Source of the DNA: Streptomyces sp. L-9-10
GTDB lineage: Bacteria; Actinomycetota; Actinomycetes; Streptomycetales; Streptomycetaceae
NCBI RefSeq assembly: GCF_004151105.1
Contig: NZ_PHRF01000168.1
Span: 62,001 to 126,000, forward strand
Direction of reading: 5' to 3'
DNA: 64,000 nt
Within the stretch, counting starts at the first letter, position 1. Every line of letters starts with the position of its first letter. Both the position numbers and the translations under genes were made by a program. The notes under the pieces were generated by a model. That model ran no database searches. It saw only the letters and a list, made by a program, of their open reading frames with translations, and was not told where the DNA came from. This document shows, piece by piece, positions 15,005 to 50,722 of the stretch.

Positions 15005-15296
15005 CGGCGCGCCCGCGCCCCGGCGGCGACAGCGCGCTCTCCCGTGGTCATGCCCCCGACCCTAACGGCCGGGAGGGCAACGGCGGTTACGAGACCCGTC
15101 GGCACGGAAGACGTGAGGCGTCCCCGCAGAGTTCATCCAACAGTGCGGCGGGCGCCACTTTTCGCAGGTAGGAGGGGGTGCGCGGCTCTCGGAGTGGGCC
15201 CCTCAAGTGGGCCCGGGGACCCTGCGTTTGGGCCCGGACCCATCCTTACGCTGCTCTCGCTCGGGGGATCGGGGACGGCGTGGGCGAGGAGAACTG

Positions 15297-16997
15297 ATGA
15301 CGGGCGCCGACAGGTTGCGAAGATGGCACCGGCACAACCACGGGCTGGTCGACAGAGCGCGTCGCGACCGGGGGCAGAGCGGGGCCGAGTACGCGGCGAT
15401 GGTCGGGGTGGTGTCCCTGGTCGTGGCGGGGATCGTCGGTCTGAGCGTGCCCGCCGACGAGGCGACCGGGCTGAAGAGCGCGGTGTGCCGAATCCTTCAC
15501 CCGCTGAGCGGGGCCGAAGCGTGCTCCTCCGGCGACTACGCGGGCGACGGCGACGGTAACGGCGGCGACGGGGGCGACACCGGTGGAGGCGGCGGGCCCG
15601 GCGATCCCTTCGTGCCCAACGGCGACCCGTTCGAGCCCGCGCGGTGTCTGCTGTCCCAGGACCAGACCAAGACCACCGTGGTCATCCAGATCCTCTTCAT
15701 CAAGATCAGCAGCTCGGAGACGGTCAAGCTCCAGCAGTGGTCGGACGGCACCGTCACCCTGGAGCGCGTGACCGAGGTCGGCGGCGGGGTCACGGCGAGC
15801 ATCTCCGCCGGCATCCCGGGCCTGAAGGACTGGGGCGGCAGCGCCAAGCTCAGCGGCACCTACCTGGCGGGCAGCGGCAGCGGCGGGCAGTGGCTCTTCA
15901 ACGGGAACAAGAGCGGCGATCCCCAGGCGGACCTGGCGGCCAACCTCGAGGACGCCCAGCAGTTCACCGAGTACCTCAAGGCGCAGGACAAGTGCAACAG
16001 CAGGCCCGCCGGTCCGCGCTCCTCCGAGCTGGGGATGATCTGCGGCTACCACGCCGGCAAGAAGAAGCCCGACCTCGAACCGGAGAAGGCGCCCGACGTC
16101 GACATCACCAAGACCTCCACCGAGGCGTCCGGCAACGTGAGCTTCGGCGGGAAGTTCAAGAGCAACGGCAAGGGCGGCAAGGACGCGGGGAAGAGCGACG
16201 GCCCCAAGGACCTCGGCAAGATCTCCGGCGAAGTGCTCAACGGCACCATGACCGAGGACGTCGTGGTCATGCGCACCAACACCGGTGTCAACGCCGGGAA
16301 GATCACCTTCATCTACACCTTCACCGTCAAGGGCTCGGCGGGCGCGGGCGGCGTCGCCACGGGCGAGAGGATGCAGCAGGTCGCGGTCACCTACGACGCG
16401 GCGGCCTATGACGAGGAGGAGAAGAACGACGACCCGCACCACCCGGAGAAGCTGGTCATCACCACCAGCCAGGAAGCCGGGGGCGGCGGCGGCGTCAAGG
16501 TCGAGGGGGGCGCCAACGCCGGTCCCGTCACGATCGATGTCGGCGGTGGCGGCGGTTCCACCGAGTCGCGGATACACACCGAGACGGCGGAGCTCATCCT
16601 CGACAACGACGCCGACAGCACCGCCGTCGAGGACTGGCTGCGCGGGCGCGGCGACGACCCCGCCAGCAACCCGCTGCCCTCCCCTTCCGACGCCGCCGAA
16701 GTACCGGATTCGGACGCCGGCCCGCTCGAACACCTCCTGCACGACAAGGGAAAGCTCAGCCGGCTCGACTACAAGGCCAACACCGACTGGTGGAACGCCT
16801 CGCTCGGCATCGGCTTCGGCATCTCCGCCGGACAGTTCTCCCTCGGCTTCAAACTCTTCGGCATCGACATCACCCACGAGGAGAAGAACCAGACGATCAC
16901 CGGCGACCCCACGTACGCCACCGGCCCCAAGAACGGCGGCGCCCGGCCCTGGGTCGAGTGGAAGAACTGCACCAGGACCAAGCCCATCCCCACCTGA
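15297..16997 (+). CDS. Large surface/exported protein with a Flp-type prepilin N-terminus
   Basis: A 566-residue protein; the ATG at 15297 has GAGGAGA about 6 bases upstream. Residues about 20-50 read DRGQSGAEYAAMVGVVSLVV: a glycine, then Glu at +5 and Tyr at +6, followed by a hydrophobic helix. This is the Flp/Tad prepilin processing pattern (G then xxxxEY). After an Asp/Gly linker comes a long Gly- and Lys-rich extracellular region with beta-like segments (VKLQQWSDGTVTLERVTEVG) and two Gly-rich inserts, ending with a Trp-containing domain (WWNASLGIGFGISAGQFSLG). It is far longer than true Flp pilins (about 60 residues), and no tad genes are nearby. Function is unknown; a surface-anchored structural or adhesive protein is inferred. 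Confidence 0.75.
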   Translation: MTGADRLRRWHRHNHGLVDRARRDRGQSGAEYAAMVGVVSLVVAGIVGLSVPADEATGLKSAVCRILHPLSGAEACSSGDYAGDGDGNGGDGGDTGGGGGPGDPFVPNGDPFEPARCLLSQDQTKTTVVIQILFIKISSSETVKLQQWSDGTVTLERVTEVGGGVTASISAGIPGLKDWGGSAKLSGTYLAGSGSGGQWLFNGNKSGDPQADLAANLEDAQQFTEYLKAQDKCNSRPAGPRSSELGMICGYHAGKKKPDLEPEKAPDVDITKTSTEASGNVSFGGKFKSNGKGGKDAGKSDGPKDLGKISGEVLNGTMTEDVVVMRTNTGVNAGKITFIYTFTVKGSAGAGGVATGERMQQVAVTYDAAAYDEEEKNDDPHHPEKLVITTSQEAGGGGGVKVEGGANAGPVTIDVGGGGGSTESRIHTETAELILDNDADSTAVEDWLRGRGDDPASNPLPSPSDAAEVPDSDAGPLEHLLHDKGKLSRLDYKANTDWWNASLGIGFGISAGQFSLGFKLFGIDITHEEKNQTITGDPTYATGPKNGGARPWVEWKNCTRTKPIPT

Positions 16998-36723: not shown

Positions 36724-38537
36724 GCGCCCGGAACACCACCGATGAGCAGGGCGCGGGAGTCCGGACGGACGCGGACTCGGACGTACGGACGGACGCGGGC
36801 TCGGGAGTCCGGACGGACGCGGACGTACGGACGGACGCGGACTCGGGCGTACGGGCGGGCGCGGACGTACGGACGGACGCGGACTCGGGCGTACGGGCGG
36901 GCGCGGACGTACGGACGGACGCGGGCTCGGGAGTCCGGACGGACGCGGGCTCGGGCGTGGGCCGGCTGTACGGGGTCGGTCTGGGGCCGGGAGACCCGTC
37001 CCTGATGACCGTACGGGCCGTACGGGTCATCGCCGAGGCCGAGGTGATCGCGTATCACAGCGCCCGCCACGGCCGGTCCATAGCCCGGTCCATAGCCGCC
37101 GAGCATCTGCGCCCCGATCACATCGAGGAGCCGCTGGTCTACCCGGTCACCACCGGGACCACCGACCACCCCGGCGGCTATCAGGGCGCGATGGACGAGT
37201 TCTACGCCGAGTCGGCCGCCCGGCTCGCCGCCCATCTGGACGCCGGGCGGACGGTCGCGGTGCTCGCGGAGGGCGATCCGCTCTTCTACGGCTCGTACAT
37301 GCACATGCACAAGCGGCTGGCCGGCCGCTATCCGACCGAGGTCATCCCCGGTGTGACGTCCGTGAGCGCGGCGGCGGCGCGGCTCGGTACCCCGCTCGTC
37401 GAGGGCGAGGAGGTGCTGACGGTCCTGCCGGGCACGCTGCCCGAGGAGGAGCTGACGGCCCGGCTGGCCTCGGCGGACTCGGCGGTGGTGATGAAGCTCG
37501 GCCGTACGTTCCCGACCGTGCGGCGGGCGGTCGAGCGGGCGGGCCGGCTGGCCGACGCGCGGTACGTCGAGCGCGCCACGATGAGCGGCGAACGCACCGG
37601 GGCGCTGGCCGACACGGATCCGGAATCGGTGCCGTACTTCGCGGTGGCGGTGCTGCCGAGCCGCGTTGCCGCGCGTGCCGTACCCGGGTCGGCGGAGGAA
37701 TCGGCGGAGGAATCGGCCGACGAGTCGACCACCGAGGCGGCTACTGACGCGACCGGCGAGGCGGCCGGTGACGTGGTGGTCGTGGGGACGGGCCCGGCCG
37801 GGCCGCTGTGGCTCACGCCCGAGACGCGCGGCGCGCTCGCCGCCGCCCAGGATCTCGTCGGCTACACCACCTATCTGGACCGTGTTCCGGTCCGCCCCGG
37901 TCAGCGGCGCCACGGCTCCGACAACAAGGTGGAGTCGGAGCGCGCGGAGTTCGCCCTCGACCTCGCCCGGCGGGGCCGGCGCGTGGCCGTGGTCTCGGGC
38001 GGCGACCCGGGGGTCTTCGCGATGGCCACGGCCGTCCTGGAGGCCGCGTCCGCCGACCCGTACCGGGACGTGCCCGTACGCGTGCTCCCGGGCGTGACCG
38101 CCGCCAACGCCGCCGCGGCCCGGGTCGGCGCGCCGCTCGGCCACGACTACGCCGTGCTCTCGCTCTCCGACCGGCTCAAGCCGTGGGAGGTCATCGCGGA
38201 GCGCCTGCACGCGGCGGCGGGCGCGGACCTGGTGCTGGCGCTGTACAACCCTGGTTCCGCCAGCCGGACCTGGCAGGTCGGCAAGGCCCGCGAACTCCTC
38301 CTGGAACACCGCGCGCCCGACACCCCCGTCGTCCTCGGCCGCGATGTGGGCGGGCCGGAGGAGAGCGTACGGATCGTGCGGCTGGCCGATCTCGATCCGG
38401 CGCAGGTCGACATGCGGACGATCCTGCTGGTCGGCTCCTCGCGGACGGTGACCGCGCGGCGGGGCGGGGACGGGGACGAAACGGTGGTGTGGACGCCGCG
38501 CCGCTATCCGGAGAGCCCGGGAAGCCCGGGAAGCTGA
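36720..38537 (+). CDS. cobIJ: CobIJ: fused precorrin-2 C20- and precorrin-3B C17-methyltransferase
   Basis: A 605-residue bifunctional enzyme. After an unusual N-terminal repeat extension (about residues 13-80, [14 protein letters not shown]-type), residues about 80-320 form CobI ([20 protein letters not shown], then [20 protein letters not shown]). Residues about 345-590 form CobJ ([20 protein letters not shown], then [20 protein letters not shown], then [20 protein letters not shown]). Both halves are SAM-dependent tetrapyrrole methylases of the aerobic cobalamin route, joined by an acidic Ser/Glu/Ala linker. The ATG overlaps the cobH stop. Its last 34 bases overlap the convergent cobK end. 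Confidence 0.95.
36757..36958 (+). repeat. Degenerate in-frame tandem repeat in cobIJ 5' region
   Basis: About 200 bases built from alternating blocks such as GTACGGACGGACGCGGACTC and GGGCGTACGGGCGGGCGCG. They encode about 67 residues of Val-Arg-Thr/Ala-(Asp/Gly)-Ala-Asp/Gly-Ser repeats before the CobI domain. Typical CobI proteins begin near the [13 protein letters not shown] segment, so this is an added extension. Confidence 0.85.
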
Positions 38538-39442: not shown

Positions 39443-40564
39443 ATGACTGACGGCGGGAAGGGCGGGCGTGCCGCCCAACTCAAGCACACCGGTCTCCGGC
39501 CGGGCTGGACGACCGGCGCGTGCGCGACGGCGGCGACGACCGCCGCGTACACGGCGCTGCTGACCGGCGAGTTCCCGGATCCGGTGACGATCACGCTGCC
39601 CAGGGGCCAGACGCCGTCCTTCGCCCTCGCCGGCGAGAGCCTGACCACCGGCGACCGGGCCATGGCGGCCGTGGTCAAGGACGCGGGCGACGACCCCGAC
39701 GTCACGCACGCCGCCCTGATCCGTACGACCGTACGGCTGCTGCCGCCGGGCGCGGGCGTCGTCTTCCGCGCGGGCCCGGGTGTGGGGACGGTCACCCGCG
39801 CCGGGCTCCCCCTGGACGTGGGCGAACCGGCGATCAACCCGGTCCCGCGCCAGCTGATGCGCGCCCATGTGGCGGAGGTGGCGGCCCGCCACGGCGGCAC
39901 GGGCGATGTGGAGATCACCGTCTCCGTCGACAACGGCGCGGAGATCGCCCGCTCCACCTGGAACCCGCGCCTGGGCATCCTGGGCGGGCTCTCCATACTC
40001 GGCACGACGGGCATCGTCGTGCCGTACTCCTGCTCCGCCTGGATCGACTCGATCAGACGCGGCGTGGACGTGGCCCGCGCGGCGGGCCGTACGCATATGG
40101 CGGGCTGTACGGGATCGACGTCCGAGAAGACGGTCCTCGCGGCCTACGACCTCCCCGAGGACGCCCTCCTGGACATGGGCGACTTCGTCGGAGCCGTACT
40201 CAAATACATCCGCCGCCACCCCGTCGACCGCCTCACCCTCTGCGGCGGCTTCGCCAAACTCTCCAAACTGGCGGCGGGCCACCTCGACCTCCACTCGGCC
40301 CGCTCCCAGGTGGACAAGACCTTCCTCTCCCGACTGGCCCTGACGGCAGGCGCGGACGCGCCACTGGCGGAGCAGGTGACAGCGGCCAACACGGGCCTGG
40401 AGGCACTCCGCCTGTGCCAGTCCCGGCACGTACCGCTGGGCGACGCGGTCGCGAGACGGGCACGCGACGAGGCACTGCGGGTGCTGCGCGGGGCGCCGGT
40501 GGAGGTGGACGTGATCTGTATCGACAGGGCGGGCACGGTGGTGGGCCGCAGCGATCCCGCGTGA
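39443..40564 (+). CDS. cbiD: Cobalt-precorrin-5B (C1)-methyltransferase CbiD
   Basis: A 373-residue CbiD protein: LRPGWTTGACATAATTAAYT at the start, DAGDDPDVTHAALIRTTV, VPRQLMRAHVAEVAARHG, LGIVVPYSCSA-type GTTGIVVPYSCSAWIDSIRR, and TLCGGFAKLSKLAAGHLDLH. CbiD is classed with the anaerobic route, but actinobacteria with the aerobic set commonly use it in place of CobF. GGGG lies 7 bases before the ATG, inside a near-perfect direct repeat of GGGTCTTTCCATGAC just upstream. It is divergent from cobK. Confidence 0.95.
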   Translation: MTDGGKGGRAAQLKHTGLRPGWTTGACATAATTAAYTALLTGEFPDPVTITLPRGQTPSFALAGESLTTGDRAMAAVVKDAGDDPDVTHAALIRTTVRLLPPGAGVVFRAGPGVGTVTRAGLPLDVGEPAINPVPRQLMRAHVAEVAARHGGTGDVEITVSVDNGAEIARSTWNPRLGILGGLSILGTTGIVVPYSCSAWIDSIRRGVDVARAAGRTHMAGCTGSTSEKTVLAAYDLPEDALLDMGDFVGAVLKYIRRHPVDRLTLCGGFAKLSKLAAGHLDLHSARSQVDKTFLSRLALTAGADAPLAEQVTAANTGLEALRLCQSRHVPLGDAVARRARDEALRVLRGAPVEVDVICIDRAGTVVGRSDPA

Positions 40565-40621
40565 CCGCGCGTGCCTCCGCGCATCGGTTGTACGTCACTC
40601 ACCGGCACCTTTTCGGCACTC

Positions 40622-40648
40622 CTCGGACCCGAATCCGCAAAGTCCGAG
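40622..40648 (+). terminator. Weak inverted repeat after cbiD
   Basis: CTCGGAC at 40622-40628 and GTCCGAG at 40642-40648 form a seven-pair stem with a 13-base loop, about 60 bases after the cbiD stop. It may end the cbiD transcript; it is short, so confidence is low. The rest of the gap to 40804 shows no other gene I can support. Confidence 0.3.
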
Positions 40649-40804
40649 CACGACGAAGGCCCCGAGCCGGACAATGCCCGGAGACAGACGCTGAGCCGAG
40701 GTGAAACCGCAGGGGTGACCGAGAGCGACACGAGAAGTACAAGGGCCGGGACATCCGGTGCGATGACGCACATGACTCATATGGCCGACGGGGGGAATTC
40801 GAGG

Positions 40805-41278
40805 ATGGCATGGGACGAGTGGGAGCACCTGAAGACCGAGGTCACCGCACGGCAGTCGACGGAGATGCGGCTGAACCAGCTGCCGCCGGGCGGCGGGGGC
40901 GGTGGCAATCAGGATCTCGTGGTGCGCCAGGACGATCTGGGCGCCGTGGGCCACGAGGCGTTCATGCTGTACGACCAGTTGGGCAAACAGGCCGACATCG
41001 CCGGCGCGGGTGCTGATGACAGCGGCTCCGGATCCACCATGCGTGCCGGAGCCGAGCTGAAGTCCCGTCACTTCGCCATGGGCTCGGAGCTGGAGAACAC
41101 AGTGAGCGTATGGACGGCCCAGGTGAAGGCGGTACGCCAGGCTTGTGCGCACATCTCCAATCACTTGGACTACTCGGCGAAGGAATACGCCAAGGAGGAC
41201 GAGGCCATCGGTGCCGTATTGCGAGACCGCGGCGGCGCGGCCGTCCCCGTCTCGCGCCTCAACGAGTACTTCACGTAG
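40805..41278 (+). CDS. Small helical ESX (type VII)-like secreted partner protein
   Basis: I chose ATG 40805 (MAWDEWEHLKTEVTARQSTE), with a GGGGGG run about 9 bases upstream; in-frame ATGs at 40763, 40772 and 40781 are possible. The protein has 157 residues, no signal peptide, a Gly-rich loop near residues 28-34 and a strongly helical second half. That half ends ISNHLDYSAKEYAKEDEAIG, which contains Y-x3-E and Y-x3-D, the C-terminal export signal pattern of type VII substrates. Immediately downstream is a WXG-motif protein. Such pairs usually form a helical heterodimer for export. No ESX core genes are in the window. Confidence 0.65.
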   Translation: MAWDEWEHLKTEVTARQSTEMRLNQLPPGGGGGGNQDLVVRQDDLGAVGHEAFMLYDQLGKQADIAGAGADDSGSGSTMRAGAELKSRHFAMGSELENTVSVWTAQVKAVRQACAHISNHLDYSAKEYAKEDEAIGAVLRDRGGAAVPVSRLNEYFT

Positions 41279-41299
41279 CCGACAGGGGGCCAGGACGAG

Positions 41300-42721
41300 A
41301 TGGACTACGACGATCTGTTACACGTCGACCTCGGCAAACTGAGCACCGCGGTGTCCGACTGGAAGACCGTGTTCCAAGACCTGGAGCGGCTTGCGGACAA
41401 CGCCCGTGACGGCATGAAGGCGGCGTCGGACGAGGCGCGCTGGCAGGGTGCCAACGCCACGGTGACCCGGGCCTTCGTGGGGAAGACGGCCAAGGAGTTC
41501 GACGACCTGCGCCGAGAGGCCAAGAGTGTGTGGAGCGTCATGAACGACGCCCACAGCGAATTGCTGGGGCTGCAGCGCCGGGCCAAGGACCTCACGGCGG
41601 AAGCGGGCAGGGCCGGGTTCCTGGTCACCCGTGGCCAGGACGGGAGAGTCAAGGTGATGGAAGCGCTGTGTACTCCGGAAGGCTCGGGCCAGAAGAAACT
41701 GGACCAGATGCAGTGGTACGCCGACACTCTCACCGACATCGTCAGCCACGCCGGCGAGATCGACGAGGCGACGTCCCGCGCGCTGCGCGCAAGCCACGGC
41801 GGCAACCCGGACAACCCCGGCCACGGTACGTACACCTCGCTCGACGAGGACATGTTCCCTCGTGCCGTCGGCCTGGCCCGGCTCGGGAACGATGCCGAGC
41901 CCGCGCAGCGGCAGGAACTGCGGCGGCTCTGGGCGTCCCTGAGCCCCGAGGCGCGGGCGCGATTGTGGTCACAGCACAAGGACGGCCTCTTGGACGCCGA
42001 CATTTTCGCGCCCCAGGTACGGCGCGTGGCCGCGGACGACGGGGCCGGCCCGTACGACGTGGAGGATCCGGGCTGGAGCGATCGCTGGATCCACGCGCAG
42101 GCCGGCATGATGACTGACGCGGGCGACTTCATCGGCAACACCGACGCTTCCCGGAACATGAACCACTATCTCGAAGGCTCCGGGGACACACTGAACCTGG
42201 ATGTCGACAGAATGCTCACCGACGACGAGACGCTGCGGCTGACGGCGGAGACGTCGGTCGCGGCCCACCAGGACAGATGGCGGCAGCAGGCCCTTGAAGC
42301 CTTTGAGCAGTCGGGTGGCAAGCCGGTGACCATCCCGGTGGAAACCCCCGCCCTCGGTTACACGCACAGCGATCGCAACTGGTACCTGGCCGTCGGCAGC
42401 GGCATGTCCAACACCACGGGCGCCGTCACGGTGGTGCCCGGCGCGGACGGCAGGCCGCAGGTGGCACTCGATTACCAGGTGAACGTGTGGGACCGGTACA
42501 ACTGGGATCCCGGGAAATCCACCCCGATCGGTCCGACCACGATCACCGACGCCGACATGGCCCGACTGCATACGACGGGCCTCGCGAGGGAGTTCGACAT
42601 GCGAGGCAGCGGTTCGACGCAACATGTCGAGCTGGGTTCCGGCCCCGCCCCATTACCCGATCCCCCGGACCCGGGACGCGATGGAGAGCGTACGGATCCG
42701 GGTCGCGAAGGAGTCCGGTGA
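41300..42721 (+). CDS. WXG-type protein with a large C-terminal domain (candidate type VII effector)
   Basis: A 473-residue protein starting 21 bases after the partner gene. Residues 1-110 are helical, with the WxG turn in DEARWQGANATVTRAF. The middle (about 130-300) is helical and acidic. The C-terminal 140 residues contain aromatic-rich conserved-looking sequence (YTHSDRNWYLAVGSGMSNTT, then VNVWDRYNWDPGKST, then ITDADMARLHTTGLAREFDM). That tail resembles modules at the ends of secreted polymorphic toxins, but I cannot name the family or the activity. The GTG of the next lipoprotein gene overlaps its stop. By layout it is a possible effector, with the lipoprotein as candidate immunity factor. 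Confidence 0.65.
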   Translation: MDYDDLLHVDLGKLSTAVSDWKTVFQDLERLADNARDGMKAASDEARWQGANATVTRAFVGKTAKEFDDLRREAKSVWSVMNDAHSELLGLQRRAKDLTAEAGRAGFLVTRGQDGRVKVMEALCTPEGSGQKKLDQMQWYADTLTDIVSHAGEIDEATSRALRASHGGNPDNPGHGTYTSLDEDMFPRAVGLARLGNDAEPAQRQELRRLWASLSPEARARLWSQHKDGLLDADIFAPQVRRVAADDGAGPYDVEDPGWSDRWIHAQAGMMTDAGDFIGNTDASRNMNHYLEGSGDTLNLDVDRMLTDDETLRLTAETSVAAHQDRWRQQALEAFEQSGGKPVTIPVETPALGYTHSDRNWYLAVGSGMSNTTGAVTVVPGADGRPQVALDYQVNVWDRYNWDPGKSTPIGPTTITDADMARLHTTGLAREFDMRGSGSTQHVELGSGPAPLPDPPDPGRDGERTDPGREGVR

Positions 42722-43233
42722 AGAAGATTCCGCCCCGCGGCGCCCTCATCCTGGGGGTGGCCGTCGTGCTCGGGTCGGCCCTGGCCTCCTGCTCGACCGC
42801 CACGACCGGCGACACCGCCGGCGCGCGCGGCCAGGTGCCCAACTGGGCCGGGGACGCGACACCGTCGAGCGTCAGCGAGCAGCTCGGCGTCGAGATCCCC
42901 GCGACGGCCACCGACCGCCGGGCCGCGTACCAGAACGGCTTTCAGGATGACGGACTGCTGCTGGCGTTCTCCCTGTCCACCTCGGAGGTCGACGCGTTCG
43001 TCACCGGGCTGGCGCCCCAGGGCGAACTGACGCGGCGGGAGAAACCGCTCCGTAAGTCCGTCAAACCCACCACGCCCTTCTCCCACTTGGGCCTCGCGGA
43101 GCCCGAGACTCTTCCCGATGTTCAGGAGGGGCAGATCTGCGCACCGTGCGAAGGCCGGCTGAACTCCCTTCAGATCGCGGTGCATCCGCTCGATGACCGG
43201 GCCAGCCGCGTCTACCTCAGGGGAGTCGGCTGA
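42718..43233 (+). CDS. Lipoprotein coupled to the WXG effector-like gene
   Basis: The GTG at 42718 overlaps the upstream stop (GTGA), so the two genes are translationally coupled. The 171-residue product begins VKKIPPRGALILGVAVVLGS and has the lipobox LASC with Cys25. The mature part contains a CxxC pair (GQICAPCEGRLNS) and no recognised enzyme motif. An exported, membrane-anchored protein made together with a secreted effector fits an immunity protein acting outside the membrane, but it could equally be an accessory secretion factor. The gene converges with the large protease-ATPase gene. Confidence 0.75.
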   Translation: MKKIPPRGALILGVAVVLGSALASCSTATTGDTAGARGQVPNWAGDATPSSVSEQLGVEIPATATDRRAAYQNGFQDDGLLLAFSLSTSEVDAFVTGLAPQGELTRREKPLRKSVKPTTPFSHLGLAEPETLPDVQEGQICAPCEGRLNSLQIAVHPLDDRASRVYLRGVG

Positions 43234-43270
43234 CCGCGCCTCCCCCGGCGCCCCGCGCCCCCTCCCCGGC

Positions 43271-46200
43271 TCAGTCCCCGCACACCGCCCCCGGCGGCAC
43301 CTCCGCCGGTACCGCGGCGCGCTCCGCGGCCGTGAGGGTGCGGCGGCCGGTCACCGCGCACAGGCCGGCGGTCCATTCCGCGGGGTCCAGGCGTACGGGG
43401 ATCGTCTGGCCCTCGTCGTCGTACAGGACCGTCGAACCGTCCGCCGAGACGGCCGGGAACGTCCCCGGGGTGGCGTTCATCGCCGTTCCGAAGTCGAAGG
43501 ACTCCACGGCGGAGCGGCGTCCGACCTCGTAGATCCGCACCTTTCCCGCGTCCGCCACCAGGAAGCGTCCCTCGCCGTCGATGAACTCGCCGGTGAACTC
43601 CCCGCCGGTGCCGCCGCCACCGGCGCCGCTCATGGGTCCGAGTTCCCTGCGGGCCGGGTCGAGTCGCCACAGCTCCCAGTCGCCGCCCCGGCGGAAGACC
43701 CCCATGTACCGGCCCGTGGCGTCGATACGGAGGCCGGTCGCGTCCTCCCCGATCTCGACCCGGAGTTCCCTCACCTCGCGCCCCTTGCGGACGTCCACGA
43801 CGTGAAGGGAGGTGTCGCCGAGCACCGCCACATGCCCTTCCCTGGGATACGGCCAGGTGACGGGGGTACCGCCGACGCTCCCCGCCAGGTCCAGTTCCGC
43901 CAGGTCGACCTGGTCGACGCGTTGCCCGCTCCTGGCGTCCCAGCGCTCGACGGTGGTGTGGACGGTGACGAGCAGATGCCGGTCGTCGGTGAACATGAAC
44001 AGCGAGGGCTCACCGATCTCCGCGGGGCTGACGACACTGACCTCGCGCAGGGACGGCACCTCCCGGATGACGATGTCCGAGTCCACCGGATCGGCGACCA
44101 ACGCGCCGTCACCGCTGACCTTCAGGCTCTCCCGCGCCCCCAGGCCCGGCCGGTCCGCCGTGGCGTCCGTCGTGAATCCCCCGGCCACCGTAATTCCCCC
44201 GGCCACGGTGTGCGTCCGTATCAGCTCCGCCTCGCGCGACTTGCTGATCGCCGTGGCACCGTCCGGTGTCAGGGCCGTACCCATGCCATCCCCGTCCGCG
44301 GAGAGGAACTCCCGCACACCGGCGGACATTCCGGTCACGGTCACGCCGGTCGGGTCATGGGCCAGGAGAGAGAACCCATCGTCCTCCCGCACCAGTTGAC
44401 CGTACGGGCGACGGCTCCCCAGAGCGGTGTCCGTCGCCCCGGCCCCCACGCGCGCCCCGATCTCGGAGACCGGTTTCCGCTCCTTCGTGTCGGCCAGCCG
44501 CATGACGTCGCCCACGAGATCGCTGACCGCGATGTACCGGCCCGTGCGGTCGATCGCCATTCTCTCCACGCAGGGACCGTCGCTCGCGAACCGGCCGGTC
44601 TCCTCGCCGTCCGCCACCCGGACCACCCGGTACAGCGCCTTCTCCGCGACGTCGGTGCCATGGCAGAAGACCACCGCGGTTCCGTCGCCGGACACTTCCA
44701 CCCCGTTCAGGTCGGACAGGACGGTGCGGGGCGGGCGGGAGCCCTCGTACGCGCGGAGTGTGTATTCCCTGCCCGCCATGGAGTCGCCGGTGTACGCCAG
44801 CACGGTGTCCGGGTCCGCCCCGAACCAGAGCGCCAGGAAATCGTGGCCCTCCGGAGGCTCGGTCCTGCGGACGACGGTGCCTCTGGCGAGATCCCAGATC
44901 ACCAGGTCGTCGCTGACGACGGCGGCCACCCGGCTCCCGTCCGGCGAGACCGCGGCCTGCCGGAGGGCCGAGCCACGGGTGGAGGCGATCGGGGCCGCGG
45001 ATATCGTCCGGCCGTTCGCCACCAGCGCGTCCGTTTCCGCGCGGACCTGGTACCAGAGCAGCTTTCCGTTGGCCGCGACGTAACCGGCGCCCTTCCCGTC
45101 CCGCGTGACCACCGGATGGACCGCTTCCGCTTCCGGCGGAAGGTGGGCCCGGCGTATCCGCCCGTCGTCGTCCCGTACGAACAGGGTGGCCCGCCCCAGC
45201 TCGGTCGTCGCCAGCACGACGCGGCCGTCCTCGCCGGCGGCGACCTCACGCACCCTGCCCGGCGTCCCCGACATCAGCCAGCGCGCCCGCCCGTACGCGA
45301 GGTAGCTCTGCAACAGGGCGTCGCGCGCCGATTCGGTGGGCGAGCGGCGGTACGCGGAGATCGCGAGCAGCGCCGACAGCGCCGGGTCGGTGGCGCGCAG
45401 GTCCGTCGAGGTCGCCGCCATGGAGCGGGAGTCCGCCTCGGCGGCGCGCTCCTCCGTGACGCCCGTCTGGTACACGAAGAGCGAGCCGAGCACCGCCGCG
45501 AGCGCCAGTACGGTACCGAGGCCGGTGAACAGCCCGCGTCTGCGCAGGGTTCTCGTCCGCGACCGGTCGCGGCCCCGGCGCAGGAAGTCGGCGTCGGCCT
45601 CGCTCAGGTCCTCGCCGCGCTCGCGCTCCCAGCGGCGCGCCGCCTCCAGGGCCGACGCGGCGGGCAGCAGATCCGGCACGCGGCCGGCGGCCTCCCAGCG
45701 TTCGCGGTCGTGCCGGAGACCTTCCCGCCAGGCGAGGAAGTCCCGGTCGCGTTCCACCCACGCGCCGAGCCGGTCCCACGCCCGGATCAGCGCCTCGTGG
45801 GCCAGTTCGACGGTCTCCCGCCGCTCGTCGTCGAGGCCGATGACCACCAGCCGTTCCCTGGCCAGCGCTCGGGCGACCGTCCACTCCGGCCCGTCCAGCT
45901 CCGCGCGGGGCACGACACGGCGCGTGGCCGCGGGGCCGCCGAGCGGCAGCCGGACCAGCCGCGTGAACAGCCGCCGCGCCGTGTCCTCGTCGGTCCCCTC
46001 CGTCCGGCCGGACCCGTCGGCCTCCCCCGCCGCGCGCCGCCATACGGCCTCGGCCCGCTCGGCCAGGGCGCCGCTGACGCCGCCGAGTTCCTCGTACGCC
46101 CGGTGGGTGAGCAGACCGCCCCGCTGCCGCTCCCACAGCTGATCGAGGGTGAACTCCAGGAGCGGCAGCACGCCGTGCGCGTCGCCGCAGTCGGCGAGAA

Positions 46201-47704
46201 TGCGCTGTTCCAGGCCGTCCGCGTACGCGACGGACGCGATCGCCCGGACCGGCAGGACCACCGCCTGCCGCACCTGTTCCGCGGACATCGCGGGCAGGAG
46301 GAGGGACTTGCCCCGCAGGGCGCGTTCCAGACCGGGCCGCGCGCTGACGGCTTCCAGGAAGTCGGCGCGGAGGGTCGACAGCACGCGCAGCCCCGACGGC
46401 GGGTGTTCGGGGAAGAGCGCGGCGACGGCCTCGGCGGCGGTCCGGGCGGCGGGGCCGTTGTCGAGGAGTTCCTCCAACTGGTCGACGACCACGACGAGAC
46501 CGCGGAGACCACCCACCCCGCGGAGACCACGCACCTCGCGAGCGCGCCGCGTGACCGCACCCGGACCTCCGCCCGGCCCTCGGCCTCCGCCTGTACCCGT
46601 ACCCGTACCCGCGCCAGCGCCCCCGTCCGTCAGCTGCGCCAGGATCTCCCCCCAGCCGTGCACGGAGAGCTCCGCCTCCACCACCCGGCTCTCCTCGCGC
46701 TGCGCGCTCCCCGTCAGGCCCGGCTGGGTGAGCCGTGTCAGCTCCATGGCGAGAGCGCCGAGCAGACCGGACGGACCGCCCGGCCGTACGACGACGACGG
46801 CGTATCCGGCCTTCCTCAGCCGGGGCACCACACCGGCCCGCACCAGCGACGACTTCCCGCAGCCCGACGGGCCGAAGACGGTGACCACCGCGTGCTCGGT
46901 GACCAGCGCGGCGACCTCGGCGCTCTCCTCGTCCCTGCCGTGGAAGACCTCGCTGTCCGCCTCCTGGAACGCCGACAGACCGCGGAACGGCGAGGGCGGC
47001 AGAACCACCTCCCGCAACGACGGTACGGCGAGCAGCAGTTCCGCGGTCGGGATGAGGAAGGCGGACGGCTGCCGGGGATCGGCGGCGACCACCATGCCGA
47101 CCACGGCACCCAGCCGCTCGTCCCACACCGGTGCTCCGCTGAAGCCCCGGCTGATCGCGTGGTTGCTGCCCGCCGCCCGCTCGAACTGGAGCCAGCCGGC
47201 TCCCTGCCGCGCCCGCAGGACGCCCGCGTGCCACACCCCGTCGTCGTGGCGGGCCGGGAAGCCGAAGGTCCGCACGGGGTGTCCCCATACGTCGTCCGCC
47301 TCGGCCATGCGCAGCGGTACGGAGCCGGGGATGGTGGACCGCAGGCGCAGTACAGCGATGTCACGGGCCCCGGACGGGCCGCCGTCGGGCCAGTACTCCA
47401 CCGCCGCCGCGACGACCACCGGACCGCCCGCCGGGCCGCCCTTCCGGCCGTCCCCCTCCCGGCTATCCCCCCGACCGCCCGCCGGGCCGTCCACGGGGCC
47501 GAGCGGCAGGTCCACCTCGACGGTCGCCCCGGGGGCCGGGCGCTCGTCCTCGTCCAGCCCGAGCGCGGAGGCGACGACATGGGCGCAGGTGACGGCCAGT
47601 TCCCCGGTCACGAGAAAGCCGACGCCGACAGCCGTACCGTCGGGATACCGGACCCTGAGCACCGCGGCGGCGAGCGGCTCGGGCGTACTCGGCATCTCGA
47701 CCAC
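43271..47704 (-). CDS. Trypsin-like protease / nSTAND1 NTPase / beta-propeller protein
   Basis: A 1477-residue multidomain protein from GTG 47704 (ATG 47695 possible). Residues 1-230 are a trypsin-like protease: His near 41 in LAVTCAHVVASA, Asp near 113 in ARDIAVL, Ser near 189 in RGFSGAPVWDE. From about 245, SPFRGLSAFQEADSEVFHGR starts an nSTAND1 NTPase with Walker A GPSGCGKSSL near 280 and Walker B VVVVDQLEELLDN. A single membrane helix lies near 721-746 (GTVLALAAVLGSLFVYQTG). The remaining 700 residues are a WD40-like propeller (AAVSPDGSRVAAVVSDDLVI), ending LDPAEWTAGLCAVTGRRTL. Such protease-STAND-sensor proteins are thought to act in stress or conflict signalling in multicellular bacteria; the trigger here is unknown. 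Confidence 0.88.
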   Translation of the reverse strand: MVEMPSTPEPLAAAVLRVRYPDGTAVGVGFLVTGELAVTCAHVVASALGLDEDERPAPGATVEVDLPLGPVDGPAGGRGDSREGDGRKGGPAGGPVVVAAAVEYWPDGGPSGARDIAVLRLRSTIPGSVPLRMAEADDVWGHPVRTFGFPARHDDGVWHAGVLRARQGAGWLQFERAAGSNHAISRGFSGAPVWDERLGAVVGMVVAADPRQPSAFLIPTAELLLAVPSLREVVLPPSPFRGLSAFQEADSEVFHGRDEESAEVAALVTEHAVVTVFGPSGCGKSSLVRAGVVPRLRKAGYAVVVVRPGGPSGLLGALAMELTRLTQPGLTGSAQREESRVVEAELSVHGWGEILAQLTDGGAGAGTGTGTGGGRGPGGGPGAVTRRAREVRGLRGVGGLRGLVVVVDQLEELLDNGPAARTAAEAVAALFPEHPPSGLRVLSTLRADFLEAVSARPGLERALRGKSLLLPAMSAEQVRQAVVLPVRAIASVAYADGLEQRILADCGDAHGVLPLLEFTLDQLWERQRGGLLTHRAYEELGGVSGALAERAEAVWRRAAGEADGSGRTEGTDEDTARRLFTRLVRLPLGGPAATRRVVPRAELDGPEWTVARALARERLVVIGLDDERRETVELAHEALIRAWDRLGAWVERDRDFLAWREGLRHDRERWEAAGRVPDLLPAASALEAARRWERERGEDLSEADADFLRRGRDRSRTRTLRRRGLFTGLGTVLALAAVLGSLFVYQTGVTEERAAEADSRSMAATSTDLRATDPALSALLAISAYRRSPTESARDALLQSYLAYGRARWLMSGTPGRVREVAAGEDGRVVLATTELGRATLFVRDDDGRIRRAHLPPEAEAVHPVVTRDGKGAGYVAANGKLLWYQVRAETDALVANGRTISAAPIASTRGSALRQAAVSPDGSRVAAVVSDDLVIWDLARGTVVRRTEPPEGHDFLALWFGADPDTVLAYTGDSMAGREYTLRAYEGSRPPRTVLSDLNGVEVSGDGTAVVFCHGTDVAEKALYRVVRVADGEETGRFASDGPCVERMAIDRTGRYIAVSDLVGDVMRLADTKERKPVSEIGARVGAGATDTALGSRRPYGQLVREDDGFSLLAHDPTGVTVTGMSAGVREFLSADGDGMGTALTPDGATAISKSREAELIRTHTVAGGITVAGGFTTDATADRPGLGARESLKVSGDGALVADPVDSDIVIREVPSLREVSVVSPAEIGEPSLFMFTDDRHLLVTVHTTVERWDARSGQRVDQVDLAELDLAGSVGGTPVTWPYPREGHVAVLGDTSLHVVDVRKGREVRELRVEIGEDATGLRIDATGRYMGVFRRGGDWELWRLDPARRELGPMSGAGGGGTGGEFTGEFIDGEGRFLVADAGKVRIYEVGRRSAVESFDFGTAMNATPGTFPAVSADGSTVLYDDEGQTIPVRLDPAEWTAGLCAVTGRRTLTAAERAAVPAEVPPGAVCGD

Positions 47705-47735
47705 GTACGCCCAACTCCCTTGTACGACTTGGCAG

Positions 47736-47754
47736 TTTATTGAGGATTTATTGA
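47736..47754 (-). promoter_or_regulatory. AT-rich direct repeat upstream of the protease-STAND gene
   Basis: TTTATTGA occurs at 47736-47743 and again at 47747-47754, exactly 11 bases apart, about one helical turn. It is 32-50 bases before the GTG at 47704, in one of the few AT-rich patches of the window, so it likely marks the promoter or a regulator site. The remaining part of the 232-base gap to cobM shows only GC-rich filler. Confidence 0.4.
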
Positions 47755-47936
47755 ATGTTCGATTGCCCTCTCAGTATGGCGCGCGGACGCATCTCACATG
47801 GAGCCCTGGGTCGAACACATGAGGAAGATGTGACATGACCGCGACAAAGAAGAACAGGACCGGGCAGGGCTGAAGCGCCTGAAGCGCCCCACAGGGCCTG
47901 AAGCTCCCGACAGGACCCGGCGGGACCCGGCAGGAC

Positions 47937-48695
47937 CTACGGCCGCGAGGTGTGCGGGCGCTCCCTGTCGGCCGAGTACAGGTGGCTGTCGCGGAACTGC
48001 TCCGCGCCCAGCGTCCGGCCGACCATGATGACCGCCGTCCGCACCACACCCGCCGCCTTCACCTGGCCGGCGATGTCGTCCAGCGTGCCGCGCAGCACCA
48101 GTTCGTCCGGGCGGCTGGCCATCGCCACCACCGCGGCCGGGCAGTCCGCCCCGTAGTGCGGCAGCAGTTCGGCCACCACCCGGTCCACATACCGCGCGGC
48201 CAGGTGCAGGACGAGCAGCGCGCCGCTCCGGCCGAGGGTCGCCAGGTCCTCGCCCTCCGGCATCGGGGTGGCGCGCTGGGCGATCCGCGTGAGGATCACC
48301 GTCTGGCCCACCGTCGGGATCGTCAGCTCACGCTTCAGCGCGGCGGCCGCCGCCGCGAACGCCGGTACGCCCGGCACCACTTCGTACGGCACGCCCGCCG
48401 CGTCCAGCCGGCGCATCTGCTCCGCGACGGCGCTGAAGACCGACGGGTCGCCGGAGTGCAGCCGGGCGACGTCGTGGCCCTCCTCGTGCGCCCGGACCAA
48501 CTCGGCCGTGATCCCGTCCAGGTCCATCTGCGCGGTGTCGACCAGGCGCGCGTCGGGCGGGCACTCGGCCAGCAGTTCGCGCGGCACGAGGCTGCCCGCG
48601 TACAGACACACCCGGCAGGCGGCCAGCCTGCGGGCGCCGCGCACCGTGATCAGATCGGCGGCGCCGGGACCGGCGCCGATGAAGTACACCGTCAT
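47937..48695 (-). CDS. cobM: Precorrin-4 C11-methyltransferase CobM
   Basis: A 252-residue SAM-dependent tetrapyrrole methylase: MTVYFIGAGPGAADLITVRG at the N-terminus, CLYAGSLVPRELLAECP, VARLHSGDPSVFSAVAEQMR, YEVVPGVPAFAAAAAALKRE and the C-terminal HLYSADRERPH. It methylates C11 of precorrin-4. GGAGAAG precedes the ATG at 48695, which overlaps the cobL stop by four bases. It is separated from the rest of the cob genes by the effector-like and protease-STAND genes. Confidence 0.95.
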   Translation of the reverse strand: MTVYFIGAGPGAADLITVRGARRLAACRVCLYAGSLVPRELLAECPPDARLVDTAQMDLDGITAELVRAHEEGHDVARLHSGDPSVFSAVAEQMRRLDAAGVPYEVVPGVPAFAAAAAALKRELTIPTVGQTVILTRIAQRATPMPEGEDLATLGRSGALLVLHLAARYVDRVVAELLPHYGADCPAAVVAMASRPDELVLRGTLDDIAGQVKAAGVVRTAVIMVGRTLGAEQFRDSHLYSADRERPHTSRP

Positions 48696-50164
48696 CGTTC
48701 TTCTCCTGCCAAGGGGAGTCCTGCCGAGGGGAGACCTGCCGACGGAAATCCCGCCGAAGGGAGTCCTGCTGAAGGGACGCCCGCTGAAGGAACTCCTGTT
48801 GTGGGGACCCGCGGAGGCCGGTCCTTCGTGACCGCCCACTGAGTGACCGGCATGGCCTGCCGCCAGCCGGTGAAACCGCCCACCGGAACGGCGTGCGCGA
48901 CCGCCAGCCGTACGAGTTCCCCGCCCAGGCGGCGGTACCACTCGGCGAGCAGCGCCTCGGACTCCAGCGTCACCGTGTTCGCGACCAGCCTGCCGCCCTC
49001 GGGCAGCGCGTCCCAGCAGCGCTCCAGCAGCCCCGGTACGGTCAGCCCGCCGCCGATGAACACCGCGTCGGGCACCGGCAGTCCGGCCAGCGCGCCGGGC
49101 GCCCCGCCGGTGACGACGCGCAGCCCGGGGACGCCGAGCGCCCGCGCGTTGCGGCCGATACGTTCCGCCCGCGCCGGATCGCGCTCGACCGAGACGGCGC
49201 GGCAGGACCGGTGCGTACGCATCCACTCGACGGCGATCGAGCCCGACCCGCCGCCGATGTCCCAGAGCAGTTCGCCGGGCGCGGGCGCGAGCGCGGCCAG
49301 GGTCGCGGCGCGCACATGCCGCTTGGTGAGCTGGCCGTCGTGCTCGTACGCGGTGTCCGGCAGGCCGGGTACGGCGCCGAGGCGCGGCGCGTCGGGCGCG
49401 CGGCGGCACTCGACCGCCACGACATTGAGCGGATCACCGGCGGGCTCGGCCCACTCCTGGGCGACGCCCTCGAATCGCCGTTCCCGTTCCCCGCCGCCGA
49501 GTTGTTCGAGGACATGCATACGGCTCGGCCCGAAACCCCGGTCCCTCAGCAGCGCCGCCACCTCGGCCGGGGTCGCCGCCCCCGCGCTGAGCACGAGCAC
49601 CCGACGGCCGTCGTACAGGGCGGCGGAGAGCCGCTCGGCGGGGCGGCCGACGAGTGTGACCACCTCCGTGTCCTCCACCGGCCAGCCGAGCCGGGCGCAC
49701 GCGTACGAGACGGACGACGGATGCGGCAGCACGCGCAGCGCCCCGGCCCGCTGGGCGTCGGCGCCGAGGGTCACGGACAGGACCTCGGACAGGGTCCGCC
49801 CGATCCCGTGGAACATCGGGTCCCCGCTCGCCAGTACGGCGACCCGTCGCCCGGCGTGGGCGGCGAGCAGCCCGGAAACGGCGGGCCGCAGCGGCGACGG
49901 CCACGGCACCCGCTCGCCCGCGCACTCCCCGGGGAGCAGGGCCAGTTGCCGGGGGCCGCCGATGAGGACGTCCGCCTCGCGCAGCGCGGCCCGCGAGCCG
50001 CCGGGCAGCCCCGCCCAGCCGTCGGCGCCGATCCCGACGACGGTCACCGGCACCGACACAGGCACCGGCACCGGCACCGGCTCCGGCCCCTGGGGCGCGG
50101 GGGACCCGGATGGCCCGGGGGACCCCGTGGGCCCTGTGGGCGCGGATGGCTGGGCGGGGCTCAC
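48692..50164 (-). CDS. cobL: Precorrin-6Y C5,15-methyltransferase (decarboxylating) CobL
   Basis: A 490-residue CbiE-CbiT fusion. The CbiE half (about residues 38-240) has VTVVGIGADGWAGLPGGSRA, VAVLASGDPMFHGIG and VSYACARLGWPVEDTEVVTL. The CbiT half (about 265-450) has LTKRHVRAATLAALAPAPGE, LLWDIGGGSGSIAVEWMR and DAVFIGGGLTVPGLLERCWD. It methylates C5 and C15 and decarboxylates the C12 acetate. Both ends carry low-complexity additions: a Pro-Val run before the first strand and six 15-base repeats encoding PSAGL-type units at the C-terminus (48714-48803). It is co-translated with cobM. Confidence 0.95.
   Translation of the reverse strand: MSPAQPSAPTGPTGSPGPSGSPAPQGPEPVPVPVPVSVPVTVVGIGADGWAGLPGGSRAALREADVLIGGPRQLALLPGECAGERVPWPSPLRPAVSGLLAAHAGRRVAVLASGDPMFHGIGRTLSEVLSVTLGADAQRAGALRVLPHPSSVSYACARLGWPVEDTEVVTLVGRPAERLSAALYDGRRVLVLSAGAATPAEVAALLRDRGFGPSRMHVLEQLGGGERERRFEGVAQEWAEPAGDPLNVVAVECRRAPDAPRLGAVPGLPDTAYEHDGQLTKRHVRAATLAALAPAPGELLWDIGGGSGSIAVEWMRTHRSCRAVSVERDPARAERIGRNARALGVPGLRVVTGGAPGALAGLPVPDAVFIGGGLTVPGLLERCWDALPEGGRLVANTVTLESEALLAEWYRRLGGELVRLAVAHAVPVGGFTGWRQAMPVTQWAVTKDRPPRVPTTGVPSAGVPSAGLPSAGFPSAGLPSAGLPLAGEER
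48714..48803 (-). repeat. Six 15-base tandem repeats at the 3' end of cobL
   Basis: Six consecutive units, plus-strand consensus GGGAGTCCTGCCGAA, from 48714 to 48803. They encode the PSAG(L/V/F) tail of CobL after the CbiT domain and end right before the cobM start. Confidence 0.9.
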
Positions 50165-50269
50165 TGCCGTACACCTCTGAACTGGGGGAAGACCGAGTCC
50201 GCACTCTACTGGCCGCCCTCCGGACGAGATGCGGGTGACCCATCCGTATGGAACCTTGAGGTGACGGCA

Positions 50270-50722
50270 ATGGCCGCGGACCGGACCGGCACCGGCCCGC
50301 GGCCCGTCTCCTCACCGAGGGAGCGCCCCATGACGGCCAAGAGGGCACTTGCTACCGGCTGGACGGTCTTCGCCGCGGTTCTCATGATCTTCGGCGGCGC
50401 GATGACGGTCCTGGCGGGCATCTCCGCCATCGCCAGGGACGACATCTTCCTGGCGACGAGGAACTACGTCTTCTCGTTCAGCCTCGTGGGCTGGGGCTGG
50501 GTCCATCTCATCATCGGCGCCATCATCTTCATCGCGGGCTGCGCGCTGTTGCGGGGCGCGGTGTGGGCGCGCGTGATCGGTGTGATCCTGGCGGGTCTCG
50601 GCGCGGTCTCGAACTTCCTCTGGATCCCGCGTTATCCGCTCTGGGCCCTCGTGCTCCTCGCCGTCGATCTCTTCATCATCTGGGCGCTGTGCGCGGGCGA
50701 CAGGCGCCGCTCCGAGAGATGA
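50270..50722 (+). CDS. Small integral membrane protein (DUF7144-like)
   Basis: A 150-residue protein with GAGGTGA about 5 bases before the ATG at 50270; an ATG at 50330 with GGGAG is an alternative start. Four membrane helices are visible: GWTVFAAVLMIFGGAMTVLA, WGWVHLIIGAIIFIAGCALL, ARVIGVILAGLGAVSNFLWI and WALVLLAVDLFIIWALCA. The pattern matches a family of four-helix actinobacterial membrane proteins with no assigned role. It is divergent from cobL and convergent with the TetR gene. Confidence 0.8.
   Translation: MAADRTGTGPRPVSSPRERPMTAKRALATGWTVFAAVLMIFGGAMTVLAGISAIARDDIFLATRNYVFSFSLVGWGWVHLIIGAIIFIAGCALLRGAVWARVIGVILAGLGAVSNFLWIPRYPLWALVLLAVDLFIIWALCAGDRRRSER

What the first reader, a model, noticed from the sequence alone, without database searches (positions are those of the whole stretch)
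43271..47704. Protease-nSTAND-propeller protein beside the candidate effector cassette
The protein joins a complete trypsin-like triad, a STAND NTPase, a membrane helix and a long propeller. STAND proteins are established as threat sensors in bacteria, and protease-STAND fusions are enriched in multicellular actinobacteria. Its position next to a possible toxin cassette suggests an island for inter-bacterial or phage conflict.
Basis: partly seen in the sequence, partly recalled or inferred. Interest (0 to 1): 0.55.

Follow-up and report, generated by a model that had tools for sequence, protein, structure and literature searches.

The report
Membrane-anchored bacterial protease alarm protein
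A soil bacterium carries a large membrane protein that joins a cutting enzyme, an ATP-driven switch and a probably outward-facing sensor, a likely infection or damage alarm of a family usually found with a small partner gene that this copy lacks.

Summary
Window 43271-47704 (-) encodes a 1477-aa protein with a trypsin-like protease (H42/D115/S189), an nSTAND1 NTPase (Pfam 1.4e-93), one membrane helix and a long propeller. The "island" reading is not supported. The neighbouring cassette is convergent and stands alone in the three other genomes read. The two share a variable slot between cbiD and cobM, filled this way in two species. No ortholog was found in a sample of 294 other same-genus genomes; one exists in S. 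scopuliridis.

(1) 43 of 56 distinct trypsin-nSTAND1 homologs have an open Trypco1 gene beside them, the known trypsin-co-occurring partner, and 2 more a broken one; the window copy has none. (2) In 58 of 58 homolog rows with the helix, positive charge lies on the N side, and a C-terminal Cys pair is conserved. This predicts protease and switch inside, propeller outside. (3) One IMG/VR phage contig carries Trypco1 plus this protein inside its head-gene module, between inverted repeats.

Best reading: a membrane-spanning, NLR-like alarm that activates a cytosolic protease. Protease core, switch and helix are under purifying selection; the propeller evolves faster. Defence is likely but untested.

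The parts
43271..47704 (-). trypsin-nSTAND1-TM-propeller gene, 1477 aa, GTG start, own 232-bp AT-richer upstream gap
46994..47683 (-). trypsin-like (HtrA-like fold) domain, residues 8-237 (my limits); H42 at 47579-47581, D115 at 47360-47362, S189 at 47138-47140
   Evidence: Trypsin_2 E 1.3e-13; triad 57 of 57 rows; fold match AlgW/HtrA1, VIA Z 19.1 and 18.9, rmsd 2.4 and 2.4, 173 and 170 aligned
45674..46990 (-). nSTAND1 NTPase domain, residues 239-677; Walker A GPSGCGKSS at 278-286
   Evidence: PF20703 E 1.4e-93; K284 57 of 57 rows
45473..45529 (-). single membrane helix, residues 726-744, preceded by an Arg-rich stretch
43361..45304 (-). beta-propeller region, residues about 801-1448
   Evidence: weak Pfam propeller hits; VIA match of the first part to WD40 propellers; poor model
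43280..43360 (-). C-terminal conserved Cys pair, C1449 and C1475
   Evidence: Cys in 52 and 49 of 57 rows, both in 49 of 57; C1449 invariant in 47 of 47
40565..47936 (.). 7.4-kb insert in the cbiD-cobM convergent slot, which is 21 bp to 5.6 kb in 30 other genomes
40571..41278 (+). cassette gene A, weak EspC-like (T7SS) match; start uncertain; not part of the system
   Evidence: PF10824 E 0.018, below cut-off
41300..42721 (+). cassette gene B, 473 aa, WxG-like N-terminal part by eye, no Pfam family; not part of the system
42718..43233 (+). cassette gene C, lipoprotein-like by eye, start overlaps the stop of gene B; not part of the system
   Evidence: read from the ORF; conserved with gene B in G004, G019 and G020
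47937..48695 (-). cobM, upstream neighbour on the same strand (start read by eye)
   Evidence: TP_methylase E 2.6e-43
39443..40564 (+). cbiD, other edge of the slot
   Evidence: CbiD E 1.3e-87

Best explanation
It is a membrane-spanning, NLR-like alarm protein that most likely serves in anti-phage or other envelope-threat defence. Shown by sequence: a complete HtrA-like serine protease, an nSTAND1 switch, one membrane helix, a propeller region, conservation of the catalytic positions, and slower evolution of protease core and switch than of the propeller. Inferred: the N-terminal protease and ATP-dependent switch are cytosolic and the propeller is on the outer side of the membrane, held by a terminal disulphide. 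The propeller senses a ligand or damage at the envelope (for example phage adsorption or a foreign envelope protein). Sensing lets nSTAND1 bind ATP and oligomerise. Oligomerisation brings protease domains together, and they cut a cytosolic target. In most relatives the first candidate target or regulator is the adjacent Trypco1 protein. The window copy has no such neighbour, so it must act on another target or on an unlinked partner. Outcome: growth arrest or death of the infected hyphal compartment.
For: Architecture and catalytic conservation. Trypco1 beside 44 of 57 trypsin-nSTAND1 rows by ORF search; L059 and L118 are one record (identical), so 43 of 56 distinct; L137 and L140 carry a broken Trypco1 there (frameshift, in-frame stop); 11 have none. 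0 of 5 nSTAND1 rows without trypsin have one adjacent, though one, L099, has one 2.3 kb away. Trypco1 was named as the neighbour of trypsin effectors in predicted conflict systems (PMC7159879, passages). Topology: K+R before the helix exceeds K+R after it in 58 of 58 rows with a helix (means 6.7 and 2.8); the ATP-using domain must be inside; the Cys pair sits at the C-terminus, and the three homologs with no helix and no propeller (L124-L126) lack it. Mobility: 161 of 72,556 plasmid records; one phage contig with Trypco1 plus this protein in the head module, between inverted-repeat arms of 66 and 60 nt, 95%. dN/dS against S. scopuliridis: protease without residues 70-100 0.20 (0.395 with them), nSTAND 0.23, helix region 0.09, propeller 0.46-0.48; the propeller minus nSTAND difference was reached in 1 of 300 permutations. 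Working precedent: in AVAST the trypsin fused to the STAND protein cuts an upstream pro-nuclease on infection (PMC12799240, abstract, introduction and passages).
Against: No experiment. PADLOC gives only weak hits, best 1.9e-5 to a reverse-transcriptase/protease model. Only 2 of 50,697 phage records match, and only in the nSTAND part; the viral-contig scan gave 2 relatives of 37 candidate stretches. No other defence gene was found among the flanking genes scanned. The window copy lacks Trypco1. The propeller model is poor (pLDDT 45), so its shape is not established. A faster propeller can reflect relaxed constraint, not diversification. The loop at residues 70-100 of the protease also varies. 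Conserved Cys also occurs in the N half (C40 in 56 of 57 rows). Homologs with a hybrid histidine kinase in place of helix and propeller show that an outside sensor is not a rule of the family.
Confidence: 0.5

Rival explanations
1. A general envelope-stress or developmental signal transducer: the same switch and protease, but tuned to the cell's own state (cell wall damage, septation, nutrient change) and cutting a regulator, not a defence weapon.
For: The membrane-spanning layout suits envelope sensing. In three relatives a hybrid histidine kinase with receiver domain takes the place of the propeller (L124, L125, L126). Maintained under selection without Trypco1.
Against: Very patchy: DNA match in 0 of 294 other same-genus genomes. 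Plasmid and phage carriage. A core developmental gene would be conserved.
Confidence: 0.25
2. A conflict island: the protease-STAND protein and the neighbouring T7SS-like cassette work together.
For: They are adjacent in the window and in S. scopuliridis, and the cassette has weak EspC-like and WxG-like secretion features.
Against: Convergent, not an operon. The cassette stands without this gene in G004, G019 and G020 (gene A was not matched in G020). The slot holds unrelated genes in other species. No toxin domain recognised.
Confidence: 0.06
3. An orphan on the way out: without Trypco1 the protein no longer works.
For: Trypco1 is adjacent in 20 of 25 members of the well-supported clade that holds it, but not here. 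No remnant of Trypco1 in the slot. In two other homologs Trypco1 is broken.
Against: Low dN/dS on protease core, switch and helix since the split from S. scopuliridis, similar to the neighbouring cbiD (0.19); open frame in both species; nine other homologs also show no adjacent Trypco1.
Confidence: 0.12
4. A regulator of cobalamin synthesis, since it lies inside the cob cluster.
For: Position next to cobM and cbiD.
Against: The slot is nearly empty or differently filled in 30 other genomes with the facing cbiD-cobM pair; relatives read on plasmids lie in unrelated surroundings.
Confidence: 0.03

Closest known systems
nSTAND1 proteins with N-terminal peptidase, predicted counter-invader systems (Kaur et al. 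2021, PMC8195603, passages)
   Same: nSTAND1 switch with a peptidase (caspase or trypsin) among the N-terminal effectors
   Different: the passages describe FGS-lectin C-termini; here a membrane helix and propeller follow
VMAP ternary systems with trypsin and Trypco1 (Kaur et al. 2020, PMC7159879, passages)
   Same: trypsin effector; Trypco1 gene beside the trypsin in most relatives
   Different: no VMAP domain in the window protein and no MoxR or vWA gene among the neighbours scanned; the window genome has two separate loci with Trypco1, trypsin-VMAP-C and an AAA gene
AVAST type 1 (Avs1) with pro-nuclease and trypsin-STAND (Tuck et al. 2025, PMC12799240, abstract, introduction and passages)
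   Same: trypsin domain fused N-terminal to a STAND NTPase; in most relatives a small gene just upstream
   Different: partner is Trypco1, not an MBL-type nuclease; membrane helix and propeller; no Avs model matched at E 0.01
Apaf-1-like apoptosome proteins
   Same: STAND switch followed by propeller; Apaf-1 (3shf, Z 13.2, rmsd 21.6, 372 aligned, tied with many WD40 rows) is in the fold list of the propeller half
   Different: protease is fused, a membrane helix separates switch and propeller, no CARD found

Membership tests
nSTAND1 NTPase (PF20703) | match to the curated profile over its cut-off | tested here: met
   315 bits against a cut-off of 27.1, positions 1-378 of 379
Trypsin_2 peptidase (PF13365) | profile match and complete triad | tested here: met
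   52.4 bits against 27.6 for residues 1-235 scanned alone; triad 57 of 57 rows; not listed in the whole-protein scan
Trypco1-trypsin pairs | Trypco1 gene adjacent to the trypsin gene | tested here: not met
   no Trypco1 ORF at the window copy and no six-frame profile match better than E 7 in 40001-50500; a 44-aa tblastn match (6e-4) at 50531-50662 lies outside the slot and was judged chance; met in 43 of 56 distinct homologs, the window and S. scopuliridis counted in the 56
VMAP ternary system | VMAP domain with MoxR and vWA partners | tested here: not met
   no VMAP domain in the protein; neighbours scanned are cob genes, cassette and metabolic or regulatory genes
AVAST (Avs) | match to an Avs model and cytosolic recognition of phage terminase or portal (feature recalled) | tested here: inconclusive
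   no Avs model in PADLOC-DB 2.0.0 matched at E 0.01; recognition not testable here
WD40 propeller | propeller fold | tested here: inconclusive
   weak Pfam hits; VIA Z 13.6, rmsd 4.6, 232 aligned, on a model of pLDDT 45; one homolog, L192, has 14 clear WD40 repeats
Anti-phage defence system | protection in a phage challenge | not testable with these tools
   needs experiment

The most novel reading that the evidence does not exclude
A class of bacterial NLR-like receptors that work across the membrane: an extracytoplasmic, fast-evolving propeller senses an attacker outside the cell (phage at the surface, or a rival's envelope-acting weapon) and switches on a cytosolic STAND-bound protease whose usual pro-effector or regulator is Trypco1. 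The unit moves on plasmids and in a phage head module, and some lineages, like this one, have rewired the protease to an unlinked target.
Probability: 0.3. Interest if true: 0.78.

Novelty: new variant of a known kind. Interest (0 to 1): 0.48.

Why it matters
STAND immune sensors of bacteria, as far as I recall, are thought to recognise intruders inside the cell. A family that puts the sensor outside and the protease inside would be a transmembrane immune receptor, and it makes a direct test possible: topology, ligand and protease target. It also gives Trypco1, a domain known only from gene neighbourhoods in the passages I read, a concrete two-gene setting for biochemistry. The phage copy suggests use in conflicts between phages.

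Tried and rejected
Rejected: a cassette-STAND unit; dependence on the cob genes; a hidden Trypco1 remnant in the slot (the best tblastn hit, 6e-4 over 44 aa at 50531-50662, lies outside the slot on the strand opposite a predicted membrane-protein ORF, and I judged it chance); insertion repeats around the window slot (only short, imperfect matches). The Trypco1 copy on contig C28 of the same genome as trans partner: its nearest relatives are Trypco1s of L022, L110 and L021, not of L017, L016, L105, L057 or L061, so it is unlikely but not excluded. The branching of the window pair beside those five loci has no support (0.14 and 0.11) and is not used. Gene-start pattern search was uninformative. 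The propeller model (pLDDT 45) is too poor for blade counts. L107 (G049), L141 and L142 gave no nSTAND ORF and L123 (G071) only 336 aa; these were left out of the homolog counts. No known-structure homolog was found by sequence (one search gave only E 0.15 and above). Literature searches: 'nSTAND, trypsin, Streptomyces' 0 papers; 'STAND NTPase, trypsin, WD40, multicellular' 3; 'Streptomyces, NLR-like, antiphage, STAND' 0; 'trypsin-like, STAND, WD40, Actinobacteria, peptidase' 2; 'Trypco' 2; 'CU044_2847' 0; 'Streptomyces, STAND, antiphage, protease, Avs', at least 4 of 5, 21, of which 20 listed. In what I saw of four papers (passages, and for one also abstract and introduction) there was no description of the Trypco1 plus trypsin-nSTAND1-helix-propeller unit; supplements could not be read, so it may be listed there.

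Full report
CHECK OF THE OBSERVATION. The ORF at 43271-47704 (-) is 1477 aa from a GTG. Coding-type composition, a full-length relative in Streptomyces scopuliridis RB72 at 85-88% and purifying selection show that it is a real gene. Trypsin_2 is found in the first 235 residues and nSTAND1 in 239-677. The triad H42/D115/S189 and the Walker-A lysine K284 are invariant in 57 of 57 trypsin-containing rows. The protease half, modelled from seven sequences (mean pLDDT 63.7), matches HtrA/Deg proteases (AlgW, VIA Z 19.1, rmsd 2.4, 173 aligned, tied with other HtrA rows). The propeller half, modelled from two sequences, is poor (pLDDT 45). Its first part nevertheless aligns with WD40 propellers such as ODA16 (Z 13.6, rmsd 4.6, 232 aligned) and the prokaryotic Thermomonospora curvata propeller 5yzv (Z 13.2, rmsd 5.1, 213 aligned).

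HOW COMMON IT IS. With residues 1-355, 68 of 81 same-genus genomes (own included) had some match, many of them only to the P-loop part. Trypsin-nSTAND1 genes longer than 600 aa were read in 26 of the 80 other genomes (a 27th, G071, has a 336-aa fragment). This is a lower bound because I fetched 40 regions from the top of the list. The best other match was 54% identical over part of the query. With 1.2 kb of the propeller DNA, 0 of 294 other same-genus genomes matched at E 1e-30. That search scored two candidates per genome in the rows shown and is blind to relatives below roughly 75% DNA identity (my estimate). So the family is widespread and patchy, and this particular gene is known to me only here and in S. 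scopuliridis. Among plasmids, 161 of 72,556 records match and 12 cover at least 80% of the query. Among annotated phages, 2 of 50,697 records match, in the nSTAND part only.

WHERE IT SITS. A close cbiD (79% identity or more; in G061 split into pieces of 82% and 71%) was found in 31 of the 60 other genomes searched; two with only 41-43% cbiD were left out. In 30 of the 31, cbiD and cobM face each other. The gap, measured between tblastn matches, is 21-274 bp in 12 and 0.5-5.6 kb in 18. One genome (G050) is rearranged. None of the 30 slots gave a match to the STAND or cassette proteins. Judged by reading their translations, the larger gaps hold unrelated genes, such as MerR- or MarR-like regulators, an alpha/beta-hydrolase-like protein and a transporter-like protein (not searched in Pfam). 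In the window and in S. scopuliridis the gap is 7.4 and 7.8 kb and holds the cassette trio and the protease-STAND gene. The cassette occurs without the STAND gene in the 20 kb read around it in G004, G019 and G020 (gene A was not matched in G020). The slot thus looks like a tolerated landing site between two gene ends, and the neighbourhood of cassette and STAND is not a functional island. Of ten more window genes from both sides, nine match metabolic or regulatory families and one none.

THE PARTNER. Of 57 trypsin-nSTAND1 rows (window included), 44 had a Trypco1 gene (PF19493) next to them by ORF search. L059 and L118 are one record, so the distinct count is 43 of 56. A translated search found broken copies beside two more, L137 (frameshift) and L140 (in-frame stop; its STAND ORF is also short, 768 aa). 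Eleven have none by these searches; one of them, the minus-strand gene of L134, lies near a second, paired copy. Six of six 'CU044_2847 family' neighbours tested are Trypco1 by Pfam. None of 5 nSTAND1 rows without trypsin has an adjacent Trypco1; L099 has one 2.3 kb away. L015, L018 and L023 are 93-98% alike and not independent. The window protein lies in a clade of 25 (support 0.996 and 1.0 in two trees) of which 20 carry Trypco1. It has none, nor does S. scopuliridis, so the partner was most simply lost. The window genome holds three other Trypco1 genes. Two are in loci with a trypsin-VMAP-C protein and an AAA gene, which look like the published ternary conflict system (vWA genes not sought). 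One, on contig C28, has no trypsin-nSTAND1 gene in the 3 kb after it.

THE MEMBRANE LAYOUT. A hydrophobic helix lies at 726-744. In 58 of 62 homolog rows a helix is found, and in 58 of 58 the 17 residues at its start side carry more K and R than the 17 at its end side (means 6.7 and 2.8; related rows are not independent). By the positive-inside rule (established knowledge) the N side is cytosolic, which also fits the ATP need of nSTAND1. The propeller is then outside. Two Cys at the far C-terminus, C1449 and C1475, are present in 52 and 49 of 57 rows, both in 49. Four rows have no helix: L061, whose gene is split, and L124-L126, which lack the Cys pair and carry a hybrid histidine kinase with receiver domain in place of the propeller. 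This layout is inferred and not shown.

SELECTION. Between the window gene and S. scopuliridis, dN/dS is 0.20 for the protease without its variable loop (0.395 with it), 0.23 for nSTAND, 0.09 for the helix region and 0.46-0.48 for the propeller. A propeller-nSTAND difference as large as the observed 0.236 arose in 1 of 300 permutations. dS of the gene (0.20) is close to that of cbiD (0.18) and the 473-aa cassette gene (0.24), so the insert probably predates the split of the two species. Across the family the first half stays 33-51% identical to the window (S. scopuliridis set aside) and the propeller half 16-32% (55 of 57 and 47 of 49 candidate rows used, L023 and L118 dropped as near-duplicates).

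THE PHAGE COPY. An IMG/VR contig (L192) carries Trypco1 (E 6.6e-25) and a 1396-aa protein with Trypsin_2 (E 2.6e-18), nSTAND1 (E 2.7e-78) and 14 WD40 repeats, downstream of a portal gene and upstream of scaffold, decoration and major head genes. Two inverted-repeat arms (66 and 60 nt, 95%) stand on either side, about 5.4 kb apart. The WD40 region repeats at 126-bp spacing with mostly 79-91% DNA identity to the reference copy (64-66% at the two ends), which suggests recent repeat amplification. L192 was one of two relatives among 37 candidate stretches in the viral collection.

MECHANISM. The closest tested precedent is AVAST type 1, where the STAND-fused trypsin cuts an upstream pro-nuclease on infection (PMC12799240; abstract, introduction and passages seen). 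By analogy, oligomerisation of nSTAND1 would bring protease domains together, and in most relatives the nearby Trypco1 would be the first substrate or regulator. The window copy must use something else. The steps shown are the domains, their conservation, the gene pairing and the selection pattern. Ligand, topology, oligomerisation, target and outcome are inferred.

NOVELTY. nSTAND1 proteins with N-terminal peptidases and Trypco1 are each in print as predicted conflict components (PMC8195603, PMC7159879, passages). The two-gene unit with a membrane helix and an outward propeller, and its carriage in a phage head module, were not found in the searches listed under Tried and rejected. I file it as a new variant of a known kind.

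Noticed in passing
L192 4839-10444 (IMGVR_UViG_2740891844_000001): Trypco1 plus trypsin-nSTAND1-WD40 gene inserted between the portal region and the scaffold gene of a phage head module, bracketed by inverted repeats of 60-66 nt, 95%.
   Followed up: partly
L125 3361-7163; L124 5680-9485; L126 4175-8388: Trypco1 beside a trypsin-nSTAND1 protein whose C-terminal part is a histidine kinase with receiver domain (Pfam; the receiver match in L124 is just under its cut-off), without membrane helix or terminal Cys pair.
   Followed up: partly
window 40565-47936 and L175-L189: The space between the facing ends of cbiD and cobM is a variable slot: 21 bp to 5.6 kb in 30 other genomes, with unrelated cargo.
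   Followed up: yes
window 40571-43233: Three-gene cassette (weak EspC-like protein, 473-aa WxG-like protein, lipoprotein-like protein with overlapping start) that recurs in other genomes and has no recognised toxin domain.
   Followed up: partly
L101 and L102 (contigs C49 and C94 of the window genome): Two loci with Trypco1, a trypsin-VMAP-C protein and an AAA gene, resembling the published ternary conflict systems.
   Followed up: partly
L099 9651-10037 (contig C28 of the window genome): A Trypco1 gene of the nSTAND1-associated type with no trypsin-nSTAND1 gene in the following 3 kb; an nSTAND1 gene without detected trypsin ends 2.3 kb before it.
   Followed up: partly
window 48692-48800: The C-terminus of CobL ends in a run of short repeats (GVPSAG/GLPSAG type; GLTT repeat profile E 3.5e-4, just under its cut-off).
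   Followed up: no
window 36742-37005: The ORF holding the cobI/cobJ-like gene has a low-complexity stretch of TDADSGV-like repeats near its start, seen in the translation.
   Followed up: no
window 15207-16997: 596-aa ORF with coding-type composition but no Pfam match at E 0.001, next to a histidine kinase gene.
   Followed up: no
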